64,000 bases of DNA, from NCBI GenBank assembly GCA_934565415.1, contig CAKTHQ010000007.1:1-64000 (forward strand), written 5' to 3'. Shown one piece after another: positions 33,150-43,825 of the stretch; the stretch's first letter is position 1; each line of letters starts with the position of its first letter. The translations under genes were made by a program, and so were the position numbers. This DNA is from an uncultured Oscillospiraceae bacterium. Its GTDB lineage: Bacteria > Bacillota > Clostridia > Oscillospirales > Oscillospiraceae. A model generated the notes under the pieces. That model was not told the origin of the DNA. It made no database searches and worked only from the letters and a program-made list of their open reading frames with translations.

Positions 33150-34220
33150 ATGGAAAAGAAAGAAAAAGGACTGCTTCGCCGTGCCGTGGACAGCTACGGC
33201 GTTCCCAGATTGATCATCACGGGCTTTTTGCTGCTGATGTTCCTGCTGGCACCCTTTGCCCAGGTCAATCTGTGGACCCAGTTCACCAATGTATTTAACC
33301 GCTTCAGCTGGAACGCCATCATGGTTCTTGCCATGGTGCCAATGATTCACTCTGGCTGCGGCCTGAACATGGGTCTGCCCCTGGCCATCATCTCTGGTCT
33401 GCTGGGTTCCACCCTGTCCATCGAGTTCGGCTTCACCGGGGCTATGAGCTTTGTCATGGCGATCGTGCTGGCAACTCCCTTCGCCGTGATTCTGGGCGCT
33501 GCCTATGGCTTCCTGCTGAACAAGATCAAGGGCGGCGAAATGATGGTCGCCACCTATGTGGGCTACTCTGCCGTATCCTTTATGTGCATGATGTGGCTGC
33601 TGTTGCCCTACAAGAGCCCTACCATGGTTTGGGGCTTCGCCGGTAAGGGCCTGCGTACCACCATCTCCCTGGAAGGCTTCTACGATAAGGTCCTGGCGAA
33701 CTTTTTGCCCATTGACCTCAATAAGTTCGGCATCAATCTGGTGATCCCCACCGGTACGCTGCTGTTCTTTGCCCTGCTGGCCTTTGCCATGTGGGCGTTC
33801 CTGCACACCAAGACCGGCACGGCCATGACCGCCGTAGGATCCAACCCCGCCTTTGCCAAGGCCGCCGGCATCAACATCGACAAGATGCGTATGCTCTCCG
33901 TGGTGCTGTCCACCTGGCTGGGTGCCATCGGCATCCTGGTCTATGAGCAGGGCTTCGGCTTTACCCAGCTGTATATGGCCCCCTTTAATATGGCCTTCCC
34001 CGCGGTAGCGGCCATCCTCATTGGCGGCGCCACCGTGAACAAGGCCTCCATTGCCAACGTGATTATCGGAACCTTCCTGTATCAGGGCATGGTGACAATG
34101 ACCCCCACCGTGATGAACGGCCTGTTCCATATGGATATGAGCGAGGTTATTCGAATCATCGTGTCCAACGGTATGATCGTCTACGCACTGACCCGTAAGA
34201 CGGAAGGAGGCAAGAACTGA
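33150..34220 (+). CDS. ABC transporter permease 1 (BPD_transp_2 type)
   Basis: 356 residues and about ten membrane helices, of the RbsC/BmpC-like permease family (NPAFAKAAGINIDKMRMLSVVLSTWLGAIGG-type loop near 228-257). It pairs with the next permease to make a heterodimeric channel. Start after GGAGGGCGAAAC; stop followed by a two-base gap to the next gene. Confidence 0.87.
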   Translation: MEKKEKGLLRRAVDSYGVPRLIITGFLLLMFLLAPFAQVNLWTQFTNVFNRFSWNAIMVLAMVPMIHSGCGLNMGLPLAIISGLLGSTLSIEFGFTGAMSFVMAIVLATPFAVILGAAYGFLLNKIKGGEMMVATYVGYSAVSFMCMMWLLLPYKSPTMVWGFAGKGLRTTISLEGFYDKVLANFLPIDLNKFGINLVIPTGTLLFFALLAFAMWAFLHTKTGTAMTAVGSNPAFAKAAGINIDKMRMLSVVLSTWLGAIGILVYEQGFGFTQLYMAPFNMAFPAVAAILIGGATVNKASIANVIIGTFLYQGMVTMTPTVMNGLFHMDMSEVIRIIVSNGMIVYALTRKTEGGKN

Positions 34221-34221
34221 T

Positions 34222-35367
34222 ATGGCAAACAAATCCAATGCCCCCCGTCTGGGCGAAAAGACCATGGGCCAGAAGGTGATGAGCTTCATCGGCAACAATA
34301 CCGTGCCCATTATGTTCATCCTGATCTGCGTCTACTGCATCCCTATGTCCGGCTTCTCCGCCAGCTACCTCCTCAACGAGGTCATGACCCGTCTGGGCCG
34401 GAACGCGTTCCTGATTCTGAGCCTGCTCATTCCCATCATGGCCGGTATGGGCCTGAACTTCGGTATGACCCTGGGCGCTATGGCCGGTGAGATCGGCCTG
34501 ATCTTCGTGGCCGACTGGCAGGTATGGGGTATCCCCGGTCTGGTGCTGGCCGCCATCATCTCCATTCCCATTTCCATCGGCCTGGGCGTGTTCATCGGCA
34601 AGATCCTGAATAAGGCCAAGGGCCGTGAGATGATTACCTCCTACATGATCGCATTCTTCATGACCGGCATCTATCAGCTGGTGGTGCTGTATATGATGGG
34701 CCCCGTCATCCCCATCAAGCACTCCTCCATCAAGCTGCCCCGGGGCTACGGCATCCGCAACACCGTTTCTCTGCTGAATATGCGCCAGAGTCTGGACAAT
34801 CTGATTCCCCTGAAGATCGGCGGCGTGAAGATTCCGGTGCTGACCCTGATCCTCATTGTACTGGCCTGCCTGTTCATTGTCTGGTTCCGCAGAACCAAGC
34901 TGGGCCAGGATATGCGGGCCGTGGGCCAGGATATGGAAGTGGCCCGGGATGCCGGTATCAACGTGGAGCGGACCCGCGTCATCGCCATGGTCATGTCCAC
35001 TGTGTTCGCCGGCTTCGGTATGATTATCTATCTGCAGAACGTGGGCAACTTCCCCACCTACACCGCCCATTCCCAGATCGGTATGTTCGCCATTGCCGCA
35101 TTGCTTGTTGGCGGCGCGTCCGTTGACAAGGCCGGCATCGGCAACGTGTTCCTGGGTGTCATCCTGTTCCACACCATGTTCATCGTGGCGCCTAAGACCG
35201 GCGCTGCCATCACCGGCGACTCCATGATTGGTGAGTATTTCCGTGTGTTCGTATCCTACGCCGTTATCACCGTGGCACTTGTAATGTACGAGGCCAAGAA
35301 GCGGAAGGCGAAGATCGCCGCCGGCGCCCAGCTTGCCGCCGAGCAGGCCGCGGAAGAGGAGGGCTGA
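34222..35367 (+). CDS. ABC transporter permease 2 (BPD_transp_2 type)
   Basis: 381 residues with the same family features (DMRAVGQDMEVARDAGINVERTR-type coupling loop, near 230-252) and an alanine/glutamate-rich tail. It is longer than permease 1 because of a loop around 145-180 (IKHSSIKLPRGYG). RBS GGAGGCAAG overlaps the end of the previous gene. Confidence 0.87.
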   Translation: MANKSNAPRLGEKTMGQKVMSFIGNNTVPIMFILICVYCIPMSGFSASYLLNEVMTRLGRNAFLILSLLIPIMAGMGLNFGMTLGAMAGEIGLIFVADWQVWGIPGLVLAAIISIPISIGLGVFIGKILNKAKGREMITSYMIAFFMTGIYQLVVLYMMGPVIPIKHSSIKLPRGYGIRNTVSLLNMRQSLDNLIPLKIGGVKIPVLTLILIVLACLFIVWFRRTKLGQDMRAVGQDMEVARDAGINVERTRVIAMVMSTVFAGFGMIIYLQNVGNFPTYTAHSQIGMFAIAALLVGGASVDKAGIGNVFLGVILFHTMFIVAPKTGAAITGDSMIGEYFRVFVSYAVITVALVMYEAKKRKAKIAAGAQLAAEQAAEEEG

Positions 35368-36302: not shown

Positions 36303-37232
36303 ATGAACACCAAGACGCTTATGTATATTCTCAAGCGTATCCTCCTGGCGCTGCTGACGGTGTGGGTGGTTATCACTGTAACCTTCTTCGTCATGCACGC
36401 TGTCCCCGGCGGCCCGTTCCTCAGCGAAAAGGCCGTCTCCGAAGCTACCCAGAAGGCATTGGAGGCCAAGTATGGTCTCGACAAGCCTGTCATGGAGCAG
36501 TATGTCAACTACCTGAAAGATATTGTGACCAAGTTTGACTTTGGTCCCTCCATTAAGCTCCGTGGCCGTCAGGTCGTCGATGTCATTGCCGACGGCATGA
36601 AGACCTCTATCAGGCTGGGCCTCATCGCCGCCGCCATCGCCTTGGGCACCGGCATTGTCCTGGGCTGTGTGGCCGCTCTGACCCGGAATTCCATTCTGGA
36701 TAAGATCATCATGGTCATCACCACTGCCTTTGTTTCTATGCCCTCCTTCATTATGGGCACACTGCTATTGCTGATCTTCTCGGTGAAGCTGGGCCTGGTG
36801 CCCGCCAACGGCGAGAGCGCCAAGGGCCTGCTGCTGCCCATCATCACCCTGAGCCTCTATCCCATGGCCTATATCACCCGTCTGACCCGCTCCTCCATGC
36901 TGGACGTGCTGGGCCAGGACTATATCCGCACCGCCAAGGCCAAGGGCGTAGCTCCCGTGAAGATCATCTTCGGTCATGCCCTGAAGAACTCTCTGATCCC
37001 CGTCATCACCTACTTTGGACCCATGCTGGCCTATATTGTCACCGGTTCTCTGGTGGTGGAGCAGATTTTCGCCGTGCCCGGCATCGGCCGTGCCTTCGTC
37101 AGTTCCATTACGGGCCGTGACTACCCCATGGTCATGGGCACCACCATTGTACTGGCCATTCTGATCGTGGTTATGAACCTGGTCAGCGACATTCTCTACA
37201 CCGTGGTAGATCCGCGGATCAAGCTGGATTAA
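36303..37232 (+). CDS. oppB: oligopeptide ABC transporter permease OppB
   Basis: 309 residues, six membrane helices of the DppB/OppB family: KRILLALLTVWVVITVTFFVMHAVPGGPF at the start and the EAA loop DYIRTAKAKGVAPVKIIFGHALKNSLIPV around 200-228. It forms the peptide channel with OppC. The ATG at 36303 follows AAGGAAGAG; the frame from 36222 runs over the promoter and is not used. Confidence 0.92.
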   Translation: MNTKTLMYILKRILLALLTVWVVITVTFFVMHAVPGGPFLSEKAVSEATQKALEAKYGLDKPVMEQYVNYLKDIVTKFDFGPSIKLRGRQVVDVIADGMKTSIRLGLIAAAIALGTGIVLGCVAALTRNSILDKIIMVITTAFVSMPSFIMGTLLLLIFSVKLGLVPANGESAKGLLLPIITLSLYPMAYITRLTRSSMLDVLGQDYIRTAKAKGVAPVKIIFGHALKNSLIPVITYFGPMLAYIVTGSLVVEQIFAVPGIGRAFVSSITGRDYPMVMGTTIVLAILIVVMNLVSDILYTVVDPRIKLD

Positions 37233-37248: not shown

Positions 37249-38313
37249 ATGGATATGAAAAAGAACCCCTTCAGCCTCCACGTGAATGTGGATGACTTCA
37301 TCCCCGCTACCGACGCGGAGAAGGAATATATGGTCCAGATGCGGCCCTCTACCACCTTCTTCAAGGATGGCATGAAGCGTCTGGTGAAAAACAAGATCGC
37401 CTTTATCAGCATGATCCTGATCATTGTCATCACCCTGGCATCCATTATTATTCCGTTCTTCTGGCCTTACAAATACGATACCATGCTGGGCGTGCGCCCC
37501 GGCAAGCCTGTAGACAGCTCCTACAACAATCTGGCACCCTTTGAGTATGGCAAAACAGAACTAAAGAAAATCGCCGCCGGTGAGAAAGTCTTCCCCCATG
37601 TGTTCGGCACCGACTCCGGCGGACGGGATTACTTTATCCGTGTGGTTTACGGCACTCGTATTTCCCTGGCCGTTGGCTTCTTCGCCAGTATCATTGTTTT
37701 GATCATCGGCATGACCATCGGCTCCATCGCGGGCTACTGCGGCGGAAAAGTGGATATCATCATCATGCGAATTGTGGATATCATTTACTCCCTGCCGGAT
37801 ACCCTGATGGTCATCCTGCTGGCCACCGTCATGAAGCAGACCCTGGGAGCCGTCATTGAGGGCACGGTCCTGGCGAAACTGGGCTCCAACATCATTTCCC
37901 TGTTCATCGTCTTTGCTCTGCTGTACTGGGTGTCCATGTCCCGGCTGATCCGGGGCCAGATCCTGTCCCTGCGGGAGCAGGAGTACGTCCTGGCTGCTCA
38001 GGCCACCGGCGCCAAGGCCGGCTGGGTCATCCGCAAGCACCTGCTGCCCAACTGCATCAGCGTGGTCATTATCTCCACCGCCCTGCAGATCCCCAGCGCT
38101 ATCTTCACCGAGAGCTACCTGTCCTTCCTGGGCCTGGGTGTCAACGCCCCCATGCCTTCCCTGGGCAGCCTGGCCTCCGACGCGCTGAACGGCGTTACCT
38201 CCTACCCCTACCGACTGGTCATTCCCGCCATTGTCATTTCTCTGATCGTTCTGTCTCTGAACCTCTTCGGTGATGGCCTGCGGGATGCCTTTGACCCCAA
38301 GCTGAAGAAATAA
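37249..38313 (+). CDS. oppC: oligopeptide ABC transporter permease OppC
   Basis: 354 residues, longer than most OppC owing to an N-terminal cytoplasmic stretch and an extra loop (IIPFFWPYKYDTMLGVRPGKPVDSSYNNL region, 65-95) before the channel domain. The EAA loop is EYVLAAQATGAKAGWVIRKHLLPN (near 245-268). AAGGAGG stands eleven bases before ATG. Confidence 0.92.
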   Translation: MDMKKNPFSLHVNVDDFIPATDAEKEYMVQMRPSTTFFKDGMKRLVKNKIAFISMILIIVITLASIIIPFFWPYKYDTMLGVRPGKPVDSSYNNLAPFEYGKTELKKIAAGEKVFPHVFGTDSGGRDYFIRVVYGTRISLAVGFFASIIVLIIGMTIGSIAGYCGGKVDIIIMRIVDIIYSLPDTLMVILLATVMKQTLGAVIEGTVLAKLGSNIISLFIVFALLYWVSMSRLIRGQILSLREQEYVLAAQATGAKAGWVIRKHLLPNCISVVIISTALQIPSAIFTESYLSFLGLGVNAPMPSLGSLASDALNGVTSYPYRLVIPAIVISLIVLSLNLFGDGLRDAFDPKLKK

Positions 38314-38333: not shown

Positions 38334-39329
38334 ATGGCATTGCTAGAAGTAAACGATTTGCATACCTCCTTCTTCACCCCTGCGGGCGAAGTGAAAGCCG
38401 TCAACGGAGTCTCCTTCAACCTGGACCGGGGCAAGGTCCTGGGCATTGTGGGAGAGTCCGGTTCCGGCAAGTCCGTCACCGCCTACTCCGTCATGCAGAT
38501 CCTGGAGAAGACCGGCAAGATCGTCTCCGGCTCCATCAAGCTGGACGGCGAGGAGCTGGTAGGCTGCGGCGAAAAGAGAATGAAGACCGTCCGGGGAAAC
38601 CGGGTGTCCATCATTTTCCAGGACCCCATGACCTCCCTGAACCCCACCTATACCATCGGCCACCAGCTGATGGAGGCCATCCTGCTGCATACCAACCGGA
38701 ACAAGCAGCAGGCCCGTGAGCGGGCCATTGAGATGCTTCGCCTGGTCAACGTCAACGAGCCTGAGAAGCGGATGAACCAGTATCCCTTCGAGTTTTCCGG
38801 CGGTATGCGCCAGAGAGTCATGATTGCCATGGCCCTGGCCTGCGAGCCTGATATCCTGATTGCCGACGAGCCCACCACCGCTCTGGACGTGACCATCCAG
38901 GCCCAGATCCTGGAGCTGATGCAGTCCCTCCAGAGAGAGCTGGGCATGGCCATCATTATGATCACTCACGACCTGGGCGTTGTTGCCCAGATGTGTGACG
39001 AGGTCATCGTCATGTACGCCGGCTCCATCTGCGAGCAGGGCACTGCCGACGAGATCTTCTACAACCCCAAGCACGAATACACCAAGGGCCTGATGCGCTC
39101 CATCCCCACGGTCGCCAACGACGGGGAGAAGCTTCAGCCCATCACCGGCACCCCCATCGACCTGCTGAATATGCCCGCCGGGTGCCCCTTCGCTCCCCGC
39201 TGTGACAACGCTATGAAGATCTGCCTGAGAGAGCCCTGCGGTCGGATGCAGATCAACGCCGATCATCAGGCAGCCTGCTGGATGAACGTGAAAGAAGAAA
39301 TGGAAAAGGAGGAAAAGACCAATGGCTGA
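38334..39329 (+). CDS. oppD: oligopeptide ABC transporter ATPase OppD
   Basis: 331 residues; Walker A GESGSGKS (near 40), Q-loop IIFQDPMTSLNP, signature FSGGMRQR, Walker B ILIADEPT and ALDVTIQ, then the C-terminal cysteine motif CPFAPRC...C typical of Opp/Dpp ATPases, which in some members binds an Fe-S cluster. Its end overlaps oppF by eight bases. Confidence 0.93.
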   Translation: MALLEVNDLHTSFFTPAGEVKAVNGVSFNLDRGKVLGIVGESGSGKSVTAYSVMQILEKTGKIVSGSIKLDGEELVGCGEKRMKTVRGNRVSIIFQDPMTSLNPTYTIGHQLMEAILLHTNRNKQQARERAIEMLRLVNVNEPEKRMNQYPFEFSGGMRQRVMIAMALACEPDILIADEPTTALDVTIQAQILELMQSLQRELGMAIIMITHDLGVVAQMCDEVIVMYAGSICEQGTADEIFYNPKHEYTKGLMRSIPTVANDGEKLQPITGTPIDLLNMPAGCPFAPRCDNAMKICLREPCGRMQINADHQAACWMNVKEEMEKEEKTNG

Positions 39330-40296
39330 TACGCTGGTTGAAGTCAAGCACCTGAAGGAGTACTTCGATATTTCCACCGGTGCCTTTTCCACCAAGCCTC
39401 TGAAGGCTGTGGACGATGTGTCCTTCTCCATCCACCGGGGAGAGACCCTGGGCCTGGTAGGTGAGTCCGGCTGCGGCAAAACCACCGTTGGCCGTACGCT
39501 CCTGCACCTGTATAAGCCCACCTCCGGCGAAATCTTCTTCGACGGCAAAAAGATCGAAACCAAGAAGGACATTCTGGACTACCGGAAAAAGTCCGCCATG
39601 GTTTTCCAGGATCCCTATTCCTCCCTGAATCCCCGTATGACCGTCTCCGATATCATTGCCGAGCCTCTGGACGTACACAAGATGTACGCCACCAAGAAGG
39701 AGCGGGAGGAGCGGGTGCTGGAGCTGATGGCCAAGGTGGGCCTGAACTCCGAGCACGCCAACCGCTACGCCCACGAGTTCTCCGGCGGCCAGCGGCAGCG
39801 TATCGGCATTGCCCGGGCTATGGCCATGAACCCCCAGTTTGTGGTCTGCGACGAGCCTGTGTCCGCCCTGGATGTGTCCATCCAGGCCCAGGTCATCAAT
39901 ATGTTTGACGAGCTCCAGGACCAGATGGGCCTGACCTATCTGTTCATCGCCCACGATCTTCTGGTGGTCCGTCATATTTCCGACAGAATCGCCGTTATGT
40001 ATCTTGGTAAAATGGTAGAGCTGGCGGACGCGAAGGAAATTTACGACCACCCCCTGCATCCCTACACCAAGTGCCTCATGTCTGCCGTTCCTCTGCCGGA
40101 CCCCAAGGCCGCCAGAGAGAATAAGCGCATCGTCCTTACCGGCGACATCCCCAGCCCCCTGAATGCCCCCTCCGGCTGCCCCTTCCGCACCCGCTGCCCC
40201 TACGCGAAAGAAGAGTGCGCCGCCTCCATGCCGGAATTCAAGGAGGTCCAGTCCGGGCACTTTGTGGCCTGCCACCGGCTGAACGAAATCGGCTAA
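39322..40296 (+). CDS. oppF: oligopeptide ABC transporter ATPase OppF
   Basis: 324 residues; Walker A GESGCGKT, Q-loop VFQDPYSSLNPR, signature FSGGQRQR, Walker B FVVCDEPV with SALDVSIQ, and the C-terminal CPFRTRCPYAKEEC motif. Partner of OppD. AAAAGGAGG lies inside the end of oppD before the ATG. All ATPase motifs are intact. Confidence 0.93.
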   Translation: MADTLVEVKHLKEYFDISTGAFSTKPLKAVDDVSFSIHRGETLGLVGESGCGKTTVGRTLLHLYKPTSGEIFFDGKKIETKKDILDYRKKSAMVFQDPYSSLNPRMTVSDIIAEPLDVHKMYATKKEREERVLELMAKVGLNSEHANRYAHEFSGGQRQRIGIARAMAMNPQFVVCDEPVSALDVSIQAQVINMFDELQDQMGLTYLFIAHDLLVVRHISDRIAVMYLGKMVELADAKEIYDHPLHPYTKCLMSAVPLPDPKAARENKRIVLTGDIPSPLNAPSGCPFRTRCPYAKEECAASMPEFKEVQSGHFVACHRLNEIG

Positions 40297-40300
40297 AAAA

Positions 40301-40320
40301 ACCTTCCCCTGGGGGAAGGT
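40301..40320. promoter_or_regulatory. intercistronic hairpin between oppF and oppA
   Basis: ACCTTCCCC-TG-GGGGAAGGT. On the plus strand no T-run follows, so it is more likely an mRNA-stabilising or processing hairpin than a full terminator. Confidence 0.5.
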
Positions 40321-40400
40321 CAGGGGACAATCTTCCTTTGAATTCAGATCCCAACCGGGATTTGAAGATAAAAATCACTATTGAGAAAGGAAAATGAAAA

Positions 40401-42215
40401 ATGAAAAAACGCATTGCTCTGCTCCTGGCTGCCGTCATGGTTCTGGGCATGGCTGCTTGCGGTTCCAAGACGGAAACCCCTGCTACCACTGCCGCTGCCA
40501 CCGAAGCCCCTGCCGACACCGGCAAGGTTGACACCAGCAACATGACTCCTGAAGAGAAGGCTGCTGCTGAGGCTGAGATCCGCTACGCCATCTCCCTGCT
40601 GTACGATCGTAACTACATCGTCGAGAAGATCACCCAGGCCGGTCAGGTCCCCGCTTCCTCCTTCGTGGCCATGGGCATGACCGACGCTGACGGCTCCGAG
40701 TTCTACAAGAACGCCGGCCACAACGACGGTTTCGACGGCTACTGGAATGTGGCTGAGGATGCCCACGAGGACAACTACTCCCAGGCCATCGAGATCCTGA
40801 GAAAGTACTACGACTACGACGAGACCACCTACCAGTTCACCAACTTCCCCACCCTGACCTACCTGTACAATACCTCCGATGCCCACAAGGCCATCGGTGA
40901 GTACCTGGCTGCTACTCTGGCTTCCGTGGGCATCACCATGAACCTGGAGAACCAGGAGTGGAACACCTTCCTGAACACCCGGAAGAACGGCGACTACTCC
41001 GTGGCCCGTAACGGCTGGGTGGCCGACTACAACGACCCCATCTGCTTCCTGGATATGTGGATTTCCTCGTCCGGCAACAACGATGTCCAGTTCGGCAAGG
41101 GCGACCACGCCGCTGTCAAGGCCTACAGCCTGGACCTGACCCCCTACGGCCTGGATACCAAGGTTGAAAACGGCACCTGGGCTGAGACCTACGATGTGCT
41201 GATCTCCGCCATCAAGTCCTGCACCGACAAGGACAACCGCTACGCCATGATGCACATTGCCGAGGATATGCTGATGGATACCGGCTGCATCGTGCCTCTG
41301 TACTACTACACCGACATCTATATGCTGGATGATACCGTTCACGGCTTCTTCAGCAACCCCCTGGGCTACAAGTACTTCTACAAGTGCGACGTGGACGGGA
41401 AGACCGACTCCATCAATGTCTGCATCGCCTCCGAGCCTGATGTTCTCGATCCCGCTCTGAACTCCGCTGTGGACGGCGCTACCCTGGACAGCCACCTGTT
41501 CGCGGGCCTTGCTAAGTGGGACACCGATGCTGACGGCAAGCTGGAGATCGTTGCCGACTGCGCCGAGTCTCTGCCCGAGGGCGTTGTCAACGAGGACGGC
41601 ACTGTGACCTACACCTACACCCTGCGTGACGGCCTGAAGTGGTCTGACGGCCAGGATCTGAAGGCTTCCGATTTCGTCTTTGCCTGGAAGCGGGCCGCTT
41701 CTGAGGAGCTGGGCGCTGACTACGGCTACATGTTCGAGAACGTGAAGGGCTATCCCAACGATCTGGCTGTGGAGGCTACCGACGACAAGACCATTGTTGT
41801 CACCCTGAACAACGCCGTTGCCTACTGGGATGAGCTGCTGGCCTTCCCCGCCTACTTCCCTGTCCGTGAGGACGTGGTTGCCAACGAGGGCTGGTGCACC
41901 GATGCTTCCACCTTTGTCTCCAACGGCGCTTACAAGATGACCGGCTGGGATCACAACTCCGTCATCACCCTGACCAAGAACGACAACTACTGGGATGCCG
42001 AGAACGTCACCATGAAGGAGATCAAGTTCTACCTGTCTGATGACACCAACAACATGCTCACCAACTTCAAGAACGGTGACTGGCTGCTCATCGACGATGT
42101 GCCCACCAACGAGATCGCTACCCTGAAGACCGAGTACCCCACCGAGTTCGTGGTGGCCGGCCAGATCGGTACCTACTACGTCTGCTGGAACATCAACGAG
42201 AACCTGCTGCCGTAA
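40401..42215 (+). CDS. oppA: oligopeptide-binding lipoprotein OppA, apparently circularly permuted
   Basis: 604 residues with a lipoprotein signal (Cys20) and an Ala/Thr linker to about 48. What follows is the half that normally ends the family: residues 49-328 begin with AEAEIRYAISLLYDRNYIVEKI (the ALSLAIDRE-type helix after the hinge) and finish with FFSNPLGYKYF, a usual C-terminus. Only then comes the usual start of the mature protein, SINVCIASEPDVLDPALN (337 on), with GLKWSDGQDLKASDFVFAW, and the protein stops at TYYVCWNINENLLP, just where the hinge normally leads into the C-terminal half. Both halves look complete and undamaged, so I read it as a functional permutant rather than a broken gene. 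Last gene of the opp operon. A fusion or assembly artefact is the alternative. Confidence 0.8.
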   Translation: MKKRIALLLAAVMVLGMAACGSKTETPATTAAATEAPADTGKVDTSNMTPEEKAAAEAEIRYAISLLYDRNYIVEKITQAGQVPASSFVAMGMTDADGSEFYKNAGHNDGFDGYWNVAEDAHEDNYSQAIEILRKYYDYDETTYQFTNFPTLTYLYNTSDAHKAIGEYLAATLASVGITMNLENQEWNTFLNTRKNGDYSVARNGWVADYNDPICFLDMWISSSGNNDVQFGKGDHAAVKAYSLDLTPYGLDTKVENGTWAETYDVLISAIKSCTDKDNRYAMMHIAEDMLMDTGCIVPLYYYTDIYMLDDTVHGFFSNPLGYKYFYKCDVDGKTDSINVCIASEPDVLDPALNSAVDGATLDSHLFAGLAKWDTDADGKLEIVADCAESLPEGVVNEDGTVTYTYTLRDGLKWSDGQDLKASDFVFAWKRAASEELGADYGYMFENVKGYPNDLAVEATDDKTIVVTLNNAVAYWDELLAFPAYFPVREDVVANEGWCTDASTFVSNGAYKMTGWDHNSVITLTKNDNYWDAENVTMKEIKFYLSDDTNNMLTNFKNGDWLLIDDVPTNEIATLKTEYPTEFVVAGQIGTYYVCWNINENLLP

Positions 42216-42246
42216 GGCACTGCGGGTGACCGCATAGAAATTCCTG

Positions 42247-42276
42247 CCTCCCCGGAAAATTCCGGGGAGGTTTTTT
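42247..42276 (+). terminator. terminator of the opp operon
   Basis: Stem CCTCCCCGGA/TCCGGGGAGG with an A-rich loop, then six T. Confidence 0.88.
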
Positions 42277-42277
42277 G

Positions 42278-42307
42278 TTGACAAATAAGGAACGTATGTT
42301 CTATAAT
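42278..42307 (+). promoter_or_regulatory. promoter with LexA (SOS) box for the Y-family polymerase
   Basis: TTGACA (42278-42283) and TATAAT (42302-42307), spacing 18. Between them GAAC-GTAT-GTTC (42290-42301) is a perfect Firmicute LexA/DinR operator core. DNA damage should derepress the gene. Confidence 0.82.
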
Positions 42308-42328
42308 AAACAAAAAGGAGGCGCAGCC

Positions 42329-43825
42329 ATGGAAAAGCAATATATTGCCATCGACTTAAAATCCTTCTACGCCTCCGTGGAGTGCGTGGAGCGAGGCCTG
42401 GACCCTATGACCACCAACCTGGTGGTGGCCGACGAGAGCCGGACGGAAAAGACCATCTGCCTGGCGGTGTCTCCATCCTTAAAAGCACACGGCATCCCCG
42501 GCCGGGCCCGGCTGTTTGAAGTGATCCAGCGGGTAGGGGAGGTAAATGCCCTGCGCAGAGAGAGGGCCCCTGGCCGGTGCTTTTCCGGAAAAAGCCAGGA
42601 CAGCATCGAGTTGAAGCGTCATCCGGAAAAGGAGCTGAGCTACATTGTCGCTCCCCCCAGAATGAGCCTTTATATGGAGTACAGCGCATATATCTACGGA
42701 ATCTATCTCAACTATGTAGCTCCGGAGGACATCCAGGTGTACTCCATCGACGAGGTGTTTATTGATGCCGCGGCTTACCTGAAGCTCTACAAAACGGATG
42801 CCAAAACCTTTGCCAAAACGCTGATTCTGAAGATCCTGGAGGAAACCGGCATTACGGCTACGGCAGGGGTTGGCACCAACCTGTACCTGTGCAAGGTTGC
42901 CATGGACATTGAAGCCAAGCACGTTGCGCCGGATCAGAACGGGGTGCGCATTGCCTGCCTGGATGAAAGGAGCTACCGGGAAAAGCTATGGGACCACAAG
43001 CCTATTACGGACTTCTGGCGGGTGGGGCCGGGGATTGCCAGAAGGCTTGCCCACAGGGGGATCAATACCATGGGGGATATTGCTCTGGTATCTCTGCAGG
43101 AGGGGTCCTTCGGGAGAAAGAGCCTGTACGATCTTTTTGGGGTCAATGCGGAGCTGCTGATTGACCACGCCTGGGGTTACGAGCCCTGCACCATCGGGGA
43201 CATCAAGGCCTATAAGCCCCAATCCCGGTCCGTAAGCTCCGGCCAGGTGCTGTCCTGCCCCTACGCTTACGACAAGGCCAGGTTGGTGGTCAGGGAAATG
43301 GCGGACCAGCTGGCCATGGATCTGGTGGCAAAAAAGCAGGTAACCCAAAAGCTGACCCTGACCTTGGGCTACGATCGGGAAAGCCTGGCAGACCCTGCAG
43401 TCCGCTATCAGGGGCCGACCACGACGGACCGCTACGGCCGCCGGGTCCCCAAAAGTGCCCACGGCACCATCGATCTGCCGGAAAAAAGTGCCTCCCAAAG
43501 GCTCATCTGCCAGGCTTACCTGGAGCTTTACGACCGAATTGCCGATAAGCGCCTGCTGCAGCGCCGCCTGACCTTGGGAGCGGACCTGTATACGCGGCAG
43601 GAGGCGCAGGAAGAAAAAGGGGCCATGAACCAGATGAGCCTTTTTGATGACCCCAATCAGACAAAGGCCCGGGAGGAAAACCTGGCCCGGGAACAGGCCA
43701 GAATTGAGGCCATGCTGAAAATCAAGGAGCGTTTCGGCAAAAACGCCATCTTCCGGGGCATGAATCTGCAGGAAGGGGCCACGGCCAGAGAGCGCAATGG
43801 CCAGATCGGCGGGCACAAAGCGTAA
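42329..43825 (+). CDS. Y-family translesion DNA polymerase (UvrX/YqjW-UmuC type)
   Basis: 498 residues. Catalytic acids are Asp9 in AIDLKSFYASVE and Asp141-Glu142 in YSIDEVFID; GVGTNLYLCKVAMD and the HhH segment WRVGPGIARRL follow, then the little-finger domain. An insertion at about 70-115 and a long C-terminal tail (from about 440) set it apart from the short DinB. QMSLFDD near 445 fits the QLxLF-type beta-clamp binding motif. It copies damaged DNA in the SOS response. AAGGAGG stands before ATG 42329. Such genes are also common on mobile elements. Confidence 0.9.
   Translation: MEKQYIAIDLKSFYASVECVERGLDPMTTNLVVADESRTEKTICLAVSPSLKAHGIPGRARLFEVIQRVGEVNALRRERAPGRCFSGKSQDSIELKRHPEKELSYIVAPPRMSLYMEYSAYIYGIYLNYVAPEDIQVYSIDEVFIDAAAYLKLYKTDAKTFAKTLILKILEETGITATAGVGTNLYLCKVAMDIEAKHVAPDQNGVRIACLDERSYREKLWDHKPITDFWRVGPGIARRLAHRGINTMGDIALVSLQEGSFGRKSLYDLFGVNAELLIDHAWGYEPCTIGDIKAYKPQSRSVSSGQVLSCPYAYDKARLVVREMADQLAMDLVAKKQVTQKLTLTLGYDRESLADPAVRYQGPTTTDRYGRRVPKSAHGTIDLPEKSASQRLICQAYLELYDRIADKRLLQRRLTLGADLYTRQEAQEEKGAMNQMSLFDDPNQTKAREENLAREQARIEAMLKIKERFGKNAIFRGMNLQEGATARERNGQIGGHKA

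What the first reader, a model, noticed from the sequence alone, without database searches (positions are those of the whole stretch)
40401..42215. OppA appears circularly permuted, with the C-terminal half placed before the N-terminal half
Peptide-binding proteins of this family normally run: lipobox, SEPxxLDP, DGxxxTADDFVFxW, GAYKMxxW, YYxxxN, hinge, AIxxxxDRxxIVE, C-terminus. Here the order is lipobox, linker, AISLLYDRNYIVE ... NPLGYKYF, then SINVCIASEPDVLDPALN ... YYVCWNINENLLP-stop. Both halves are complete and frame-intact, and the protein ends at the hinge where the other half should begin. The cut sits at the same hinge at both ends, which is what duplication followed by trimming would give. 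It is the only binding protein in an otherwise ordinary opp operon. A natural permutant of a lipoprotein SBP would move the membrane tether to the other lobe.
Basis: partly seen in the sequence, partly recalled or inferred. Interest (0 to 1): 0.8.

Follow-up and report, generated by a model that had tools for sequence, protein, structure and literature searches.

The report
Peptide-binding protein with swapped halves
A gut bacterium's peptide-capturing surface protein carries its back half in front of its front half; the rearrangement is real, shared by many related bacteria, and appears to have arisen repeatedly at a few fixed places in the chain, which makes it a natural experiment in how a protein can be cut and rejoined and still work.

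Summary
The ORF at 40401-42215 is an OppA-like lipoprotein (SBP_bac_5) whose C-terminal half precedes its N-terminal half. It is no assembly error: of 80 related loci, 21 have this order (CP1), 9 a second permuted order (CP2) and 50 the normal order. A third order (CP3) occurs in a sister subfamily, and permuted genes also sit on contigs of 3.1-3.3 Mb.

In close relatives, normal and permuted genes occupy the same place after oppF; 9 permuted gene pairs show dN/dS 0.04-0.25. With blocks put back in normal order, two careful trees each need 11 changes of architecture, and AU tests reject a single origin for CP1 and for CP2. All three cuts lie in the C-terminal half; separate lineages reuse the same loops.

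AlphaFold2 gives a confident model (pLDDT 92.5, pTM 0.88). Function, the DNA route and any adaptive reason are inferred. A permuted sugar-binding protein, TpMglB-2, is a published precedent (PMC4990184); in my ten paper searches I saw no report of a permuted OppA.

The parts
40401..40460 (+). signal peptide with lipobox (residues 1-20, Cys 20)
   Evidence: sequence; Cys 20 nearly invariant in 28 CP1 rows
40461..40544 (+). low-complexity linker between lipid anchor and fold (residues 21-48)
   Evidence: sequence; variable; pLDDT under 50 up to residue 34
40545..41378 (+). C-terminal half of OppA (residues 49-326), placed first
   Evidence: aligned to 8are 288-520; block order
41013..41039 (+). 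GWVADYNDP motif (residues 205-213), recalled to hold the Asp that binds the peptide N-terminus in OppA
   Evidence: GW..D[YF].[DE]P in 68 of 71 distinct permuted and 101 of 106 distinct normal ORFs; invariant positions
41379..41414 (+). new junction joining the old C-terminus to the old mature N-terminus (residues 327-338)
   Evidence: modelled with block pLDDT 95-98
41415..42215 (+). N-terminal half of OppA (residues 339-604) and stop codon; the chain ends at the hinge
42246..42271 (+). terminator-like stem-loop with T tail after the gene
   Evidence: consensus scan
36303..37232 (+). oppB-like permease (start taken at the inner ATG)
   Evidence: best NCBIfam model Opp3B, 314.8 bits, below its cut-off of 480
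37249..38313 (+). oppC-like permease
   Evidence: best model Opp3C, 287 bits, cut-off 450
38334..39329 (+). oppD-like ATPase
   Evidence: best model OppD PRK09473, 417.1 bits, cut-off 575
39322..40296 (+). oppF-like ATPase
   Evidence: best model OppF PRK15079, 426.1 bits, cut-off 540; passes dipeptide ATPase PRK11308, 408.7 of 408

Best explanation
The gene encodes a working, lipid-anchored oligopeptide-binding protein of an Opp-type ABC importer whose segments have been circularly permuted in place. The old ends are joined by a short linker and new ends are opened just after the first lobe-to-lobe crossing. Shown: the order, the operon position, conservation of the halves and of the peptide-site motif, purifying selection, wide occurrence, three different cuts, and more than one origin of CP1 and of CP2. 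Inferred: it folds to the usual two-lobe shape, binds peptides and hands them to the permease; the lipid tether now leads into the C-terminal lobe instead of the N-terminal lobe; the chain probably keeps one covalent crossing between lobes instead of two, because the cut lies at one of them. How the DNA was rearranged is unresolved; tandem duplication with trimming is the most likely route (about 0.5).
For: Order. Many assemblies: 21 CP1, 9 CP2, 50 normal of 80 loci; 132 CP1, 77 CP2, 29 normal, 1 N-C-N of 239 listed database proteins. Genome searches with a junction query: an uninterrupted junction in 24 of 93 genomes with a match (400 searched), 10 of 98 (391 searched) and at least 11 of 288 (398 searched, list cut off); loci classified. 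Long contigs: 3.12 and 3.14 Mb, 3.31 Mb. In place: oppF lies within 900 bases upstream in 19 of 19 CP1, 9 of 9 CP2 and 43 of 45 normal loci with room (the other two show oppF upstream). Close pair: L028 (CP1) and L064 (normal) share oppF, signal peptide and both halves, with a 12-base junction. Selection: dN/dS 0.04-0.25 in 9 permuted pairs, 0.13-0.21 in 2 normal pairs. Origins: 11 architecture changes in each careful tree; AU tests. Fold: pLDDT 92.5, pTM 0.88.
Against: No protein has been tested for binding or transport. Sequential aligners matched only the N-terminal part of the model (TM 0.36 by query length; residues 328-593); a permutation-aware comparison of the whole model was not possible, and the C-terminal half was not modelled alone. 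Within the Oscillospiraceae-type subfamily, once L028 and L003 (one MAG each) are left out, one CP1 origin is not rejected (p 0.112). The groups tested were named after trees had been seen. Changes on a tree cannot tell gain from return to normal order. Among diverged relatives the permuted gene is not always at the end of the operon: first in L216, L261 and L262, on the other strand in L259 and L260. The neighbours' best NCBIfam models are Opp models but below their curated cut-offs, one dipeptide ATPase model excepted, so the substrate is not settled.
Confidence: 0.9

Rival explanations
1. Assembly or binning artefact: the halves were put in the wrong order by an assembler.
For: The window has no held genome and the related loci are nearly all from MAGs.
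Against: The same order recurs in many assemblies with diverged sequences and on contigs of 3.1-3.3 Mb; the gene has no repeat likely to mislead an assembler (longest direct repeat 45 nt at 71%).
Confidence: 0.01
2. A broken, non-functional rearranged copy beside a working oppA elsewhere.
For: The own genome could not be searched. G048 holds a CP3 gene and also a normal-order gene of the other subfamily, and G816 and G817 hold CP1 genes and less similar normal-order SBPs.
Against: In the 8 permuted genomes the other matches to the junction query are weak (E 3.6e-5 or worse); of the 24 permuted genomes only G048 also shows a half match at E <= 1e-20. dN/dS 0.04-0.25; motif, signal peptide and operon kept.
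Confidence: 0.03
3. One ancient permutation per cut, inherited, with normal order regained or mixed by gene transfer, rather than repeated origin.
For: CAN_L158 sits inside the CP3 group (99/88, 97/93), as a return to normal order would; dropping L028 and L003, one CP1 origin inside the subfamily is not rejected (p 0.112).
Against: One clade rejected for Oscillospiraceae-type CP1 with the G745 clade (p 5.6e-40), the G745 clade with L168 and L208-L210 (3.7e-101), CP2 L019+L023+L150 (1.7e-5) and CP2 L150+L165+L166 (8.2e-4), and for all 19 CP1 of the subfamily tree (2.1e-7).
Confidence: 0.1
4. Fusion of two halves from different SBP genes, not permutation of one gene.
For: FastTrees of N and C halves differ in detail (21 and 16 changes), and for L007, L011, L012, L017 and L106 the nearest normal-order row differs between the halves, at identities of 70-83% where many rows are nearly equal.
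Against: The nearest normal relative is the same for both halves in L028 (L064, 0.889 and 0.884), L148 (L181), L164 (L181) and L150 (L175).
Confidence: 0.03
5. DNA route: fission into two genes and re-fusion, or excision as a circle and re-insertion, instead of tandem duplication and trimming.
For: No clean duplicated intermediate was seen: among the 239 proteins listed only P0001 is N-C-N, and it looks chimeric. Only the best 120 of each search were listed, so others may exist.
Against: No separate half genes were seen, but the searches could not list proteins under about 332 aa, so this was hardly tested.
Confidence: 0.35

Closest known systems
OppA and DppE of Bacillus subtilis (PDB 8are, 8ay0), cluster C / SBP_bac_5 proteins
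   Same: Homologous over both halves; same N-half fold.
   Different: Segments in normal order; ends in the N-terminal lobe (recalled domain limits).
TpMglB-2 (Tp0684) of Treponema pallidum, 'Type Ic / Cluster Bc' (PMC4990184; passages read)
   Same: A natural circularly permuted lipoprotein SBP that still binds its ligand; its authors suggest adaptation to tethering.
   Different: Cluster B sugar-binding fold, one cut, proposed as one sub-class, poor sequence match of the moved part, and a fourth crossing between lobes.
PDZ domains in four circularly permuted forms (CIRPIN preprint, PMC12667903; abstract, outline and one passage)
   Same: Several permuted forms of one fold in nature.
   Different: A small domain found by structure comparison; here orthologous genes at one operon place, up to about 89-90% identical in protein across the change of order.
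Swaposin and permuted DNA methyltransferases (PMC3320104; three passages)
   Same: Published examples of permutation by duplication.
   Different: For the OppA cases no clean intermediate was seen.

Membership tests
SBP_bac_5 (PF00496), cluster C solute-binding proteins | Significant profile match | tested here: met
   211.3 bits, cut-off 32.4, two stretches
SBP_bac_5 (PF00496), cluster C solute-binding proteins | Both halves present, N-half with the expected fold | tested here: met
SBP_bac_5 (PF00496), cluster C solute-binding proteins | Whole two-lobe fold in space | tested here: inconclusive
   pTM 0.88, but only sequential aligners were available
Canonical OppA architecture | N-half before C-half | tested here: not met
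   hence a permuted variant, not a canonical OppA
NCBIfam OppA (PRK15104) | Score over the curated equivalog cut-off | tested here: not met
   204.2 bits against 947, two stretches
Binding protein of a peptide-type ABC importer | Encoded beside two permease and two ATPase genes of the Opp/Dpp kind | tested here: met
   best models Opp3B, Opp3C, OppD, OppF, below curated cut-offs except PRK11308 for the last ATPase
Binding protein of a peptide-type ABC importer | Binds oligopeptides | not testable with these tools
   Motif kept; binding not measured
Bacterial lipoprotein | Signal peptide with lipobox Cys | tested here: met
   LGMAAC ending at residue 20; lipobox-like start in 65 of 71 distinct permuted and 81 of 106 distinct normal ORFs
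TpMglB-2-like Type Ic / Cluster Bc | Cluster B sugar-binding fold with N-lobe strands moved | tested here: not met
   Best matches are family 5 peptide-binding proteins

The most novel reading that the evidence does not exclude
OppA-type binding proteins of Bacillota are a hot spot of circular permutation: the order of the segments in one operon gene has changed about ten times or more, at least once perhaps back again, always opening the chain in the C-terminal half and repeatedly in the same three loops, because those cuts, and the new site of the membrane tether or the loosened hinge, are favoured by selection and not merely tolerated.
Probability: 0.35. Interest if true: 0.88.

Novelty: new variant of a known kind. 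Interest (0 to 1): 0.8.

Why it matters
Circular permutation is often inferred between distant proteins with the history lost. Here normal and permuted orthologues at up to about 89-90% protein identity sit at the same operon position, with three cuts and repeated origins, so the route, the cost and the benefit of permutation become testable. It also bears on how Venus-flytrap proteins work: whether they need both covalent crossings between lobes, and whether it matters which lobe carries the membrane tether. In practice, profile and structure searches that assume one order match such proteins only in pieces.

Tried and rejected
Own-genome search: no genome is held. P0001 as a duplication intermediate: rejected as clean evidence, since its first N and C1 are nearest to normal-order genes (82-84%) and its C2 and second N to CP1 genes (95-97%). 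First AlphaFold model: 28 rows, pLDDT 62.5, not used. Whole-model fold comparison: both aligners are sequential and match the N part only; no other fold family appeared, which shows nothing about the C-half. Tether placement as the general reason: CP2 proteins L229, L230, L232 and L236 show no Cys in the signal-peptide stretch before the fold (by eye), so it cannot be the whole story. Short repeats as cause: none notable in 40300-42400.

Literature: ten searches of open PMC papers. I saw no report of a permuted OppA or family 5 SBP in the listings; some searches listed 25 of 674, 28 and 55 papers. Opened besides those cited: PMC2265533, PMC3688454 and PMC6588880 (passages; permutation is mentioned there for DHFR and for membrane domains) and PMC8416018 (outline, not used). 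Other listed papers were not opened, and subscription papers are mostly missing.

Rows left out: trees used 217 of 448 full five-block rows after redundancy filtering, then chosen subsets of 74 and 52. Some genes lie in two loci: 210 ORF rows are 177 distinct, so counts on ORFs were redone on distinct ones. In one search, G042 (junction 2-127) was not examined. The match list was cut off, so its count is a lower bound. L031 and L052 hold incomplete genes; L031 shows no opp neighbours.

Full report
Observation. The ORF at 40401-42215 (604 aa) starts with a lipoprotein signal peptide, then carries the C-terminal half of an OppA (residues about 49-326), a 12-residue junction, and the N-terminal half (residues about 339-604), ending at YYVCWNINENLLP. 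phmmer aligns residues 328-580 to B. subtilis OppA 8are 13-271, residues 51-229 to 288-450 and 265-327 to 458-520. Pfam gives SBP_bac_5, 211.3 bits, two stretches. It is the last gene after oppB-, oppC-, oppD- and oppF-like genes, whose best NCBIfam models are Opp3B, Opp3C, OppD and OppF, below their curated cut-offs; the last ATPase passes the dipeptide ATPase model PRK11308. A terminator-like stem-loop follows at 42246-42271.

Not an artefact. Of the 120 proteins listed (of 7951 hits), 119 have the same order and one (P0001) is N-C-N; that list is ranked by likeness, so it is not a prevalence. In a genome collection, the best 80 of 205 related loci split into 21 with this order (CP1), 9 with a second permuted order (CP2: later C-half, N-half, earlier C-half) and 50 normal. 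Over the 239 proteins listed by two searches the split is 132 CP1, 77 CP2, 29 normal and 1 N-C-N. Permuted genes also lie on contigs of 3.12 and 3.14 Mb and 3.31 Mb.

A third order and a wider survey. A 170-residue junction query separates permuted genes (one uninterrupted match) from normal ones (two half matches). In the family of the nearest relative, 93 of 400 genomes match at E <= 1e-20, and 24 of these have an uninterrupted junction: 3 CP1 at 72-83% identity and 21 with rows at 47-62%. The loci of these 21 show a third cut (CP3), with the chain opened inside the C-half and ending ...GNNDCQFGK or the like (L122 is cut off by its contig end). In a class-wide sample 98 of 391 genomes match and 10 are permuted: CP1 in G001, G745, G478 and G781, CP2 in G755, G446, G556 and G502, CP3 in G747 and G506. 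In a phylum-wide sample 288 of 398 match at E <= 1e-15 and at least 11 are permuted, 2 CP1 and 9 CP2 (list cut off; L231 has an internal stop and lies in two pieces). In the family of G745, 41 genomes, five have a CP1 gene at 71-100% identity to the query, while G831 has a normal gene at 62-68%.

Place in the operon. Among loci L001-L080 with a complete gene and room upstream, oppF lies within 900 bases upstream of oppA in 19 of 19 CP1, 9 of 9 CP2 and 43 of 45 normal loci. The two misses, L043 and L047, come from taking the frame from stop to stop; one search shows oppF upstream in both. CP3 loci L256, L257 and L263 and their normal relative L258 also have oppC, oppD, oppF, then oppA, as does L215 (CP1). 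Elsewhere the place differs: the permuted gene comes before oppC in L216, L261 and L262 and lies on the other strand in L259 and L260. L028 (CP1) and L064 (normal) are 88-89% identical in both halves. Their DNA is collinear through oppF and the signal peptide; then L028 6012-6851 matches L064 6840-7679 and L028 6864-7676 matches L064 6009-6821, so the junction is 12 bases and little of either half is lost.

Repeated origin. Blocks were put in normal order, aligned and treed. FastTree of 217 rows needs 16 changes of architecture, 13 between normal and any permuted order; N-half and C-half trees alone need 21 and 16. The careful tree of 74 rows needs 11 (8 normal/permuted; bootstrap 8-10; well-supported branches alone force 6). 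The careful tree of 52 diverse rows needs 11 (9 normal/permuted, all 9 forced). AU tests reject one clade for the 19 CP1 of the first tree (p 2.1e-7), for Oscillospiraceae-type CP1 with the G745 clade (5.6e-40), the G745 clade with L168 and L208-L210 (3.7e-101), CP2 L019, L023 and L150 (1.7e-5), and CP2 L150 with L165 and L166 (8.2e-4). Against this: without L028 and L003, one CP1 origin within the first tree is not rejected (p 0.112), and those two rest on one MAG each. The groups were named after trees had been seen, and the trees do not tell gain from loss. CAN_L158 lies inside CP3, which may be a return to normal order. Both halves share the nearest normal relative in L028, L148, L164 and L150, but not in L007, L011, L012, L017 and L106, where identities are 70-83% and many rows are nearly equal.

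The cuts converge. CP1 opens between the strand ending ...YYVCWNIN and the first helix of the C-half; CP2 between the end of a helix (...LKKYY) and the strand at the equivalent of LTYLYN; CP3 after ...GNNDCQFG. The 91 permuted ORF rows there (71 distinct) had been sorted into these three orders, and the other ORFs were normal or incomplete; I saw no cut in the N-half. The junction queries take in about 93-113 residues of the N-half and 65-70 of the C-half, so cuts inside those stretches could be missed. The stretch between the last C block and the first N block has a median of 14 residues in all three types.

How it may work. By recalled domain limits of Salmonella OppA (domain I 1-44, 169-270, 487-517; III 271-486), the CP1 cut lies just after the first crossing from domain I to domain III. 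The permuted chain would then enter domain III from the lipid tether, cross once into domain I, and continue through the old N-half. Peptide binding and docking should be unchanged if the fold is; in E. coli DppABCDF the permease scoop sits between the two lobes of DppA (PMC12136057, passages). Why it recurs is open. Tether placement, proposed for TpMglB-2 (PMC4990184, passages), is one idea, but CP2 proteins such as L229, L230, L232 and L236 show no Cys in the signal-peptide stretch, so it cannot cover all cases. The DNA route is open too: P0001 would fit a duplication intermediate by its order, but its parts have two different parents.

What is known. Permuted SBPs exist in cluster B (TpMglB-2), and several permuted forms of one fold are reported for PDZ domains (PMC12667903, abstract). 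In ten searches of open PMC papers I saw no report of a permuted OppA or family 5 SBP (long listings were seen in part). I therefore file this as a new variant of a known kind: a permuted family 5 binding protein, with three cuts and repeated origin.

Noticed in passing
L208 (G838 contig 13, 46000-62500): Five tandem CP1-order OppA genes, and two more CP1 genes elsewhere in the same genome (L209, L210): a permuted form that has multiplied.
   Followed up: partly
L258:8494 (same gene as L158): A normal-order oppA placed inside the CP3 group on two careful trees; possibly a return from permuted to normal order.
   Followed up: partly
L028:7859-8386: Just after the permuted oppA lies a C-half-like stretch of another SBP without its N-half; a remnant or a false join near the contig end.
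   Followed up: partly
P0001 (879 aa, database protein): N-C-N protein whose first part resembles normal-order genes and whose second part resembles CP1 genes: recombinant or assembly chimera.
   Followed up: yes
L228-L236: A diverged CP2 group; L229, L230, L232 and L236 show no Cys in the signal-peptide stretch, and L231 has an internal stop codon.
   Followed up: no
window 40344-42284, minus strand: A 646-aa open frame on the opposite strand of oppA; taken as a by-product of codon bias, not a gene.
   Followed up: no
window 33150-35367: Two permease-like genes upstream of the opp operon that look like the membrane parts of another ABC importer (by eye).
   Followed up: no
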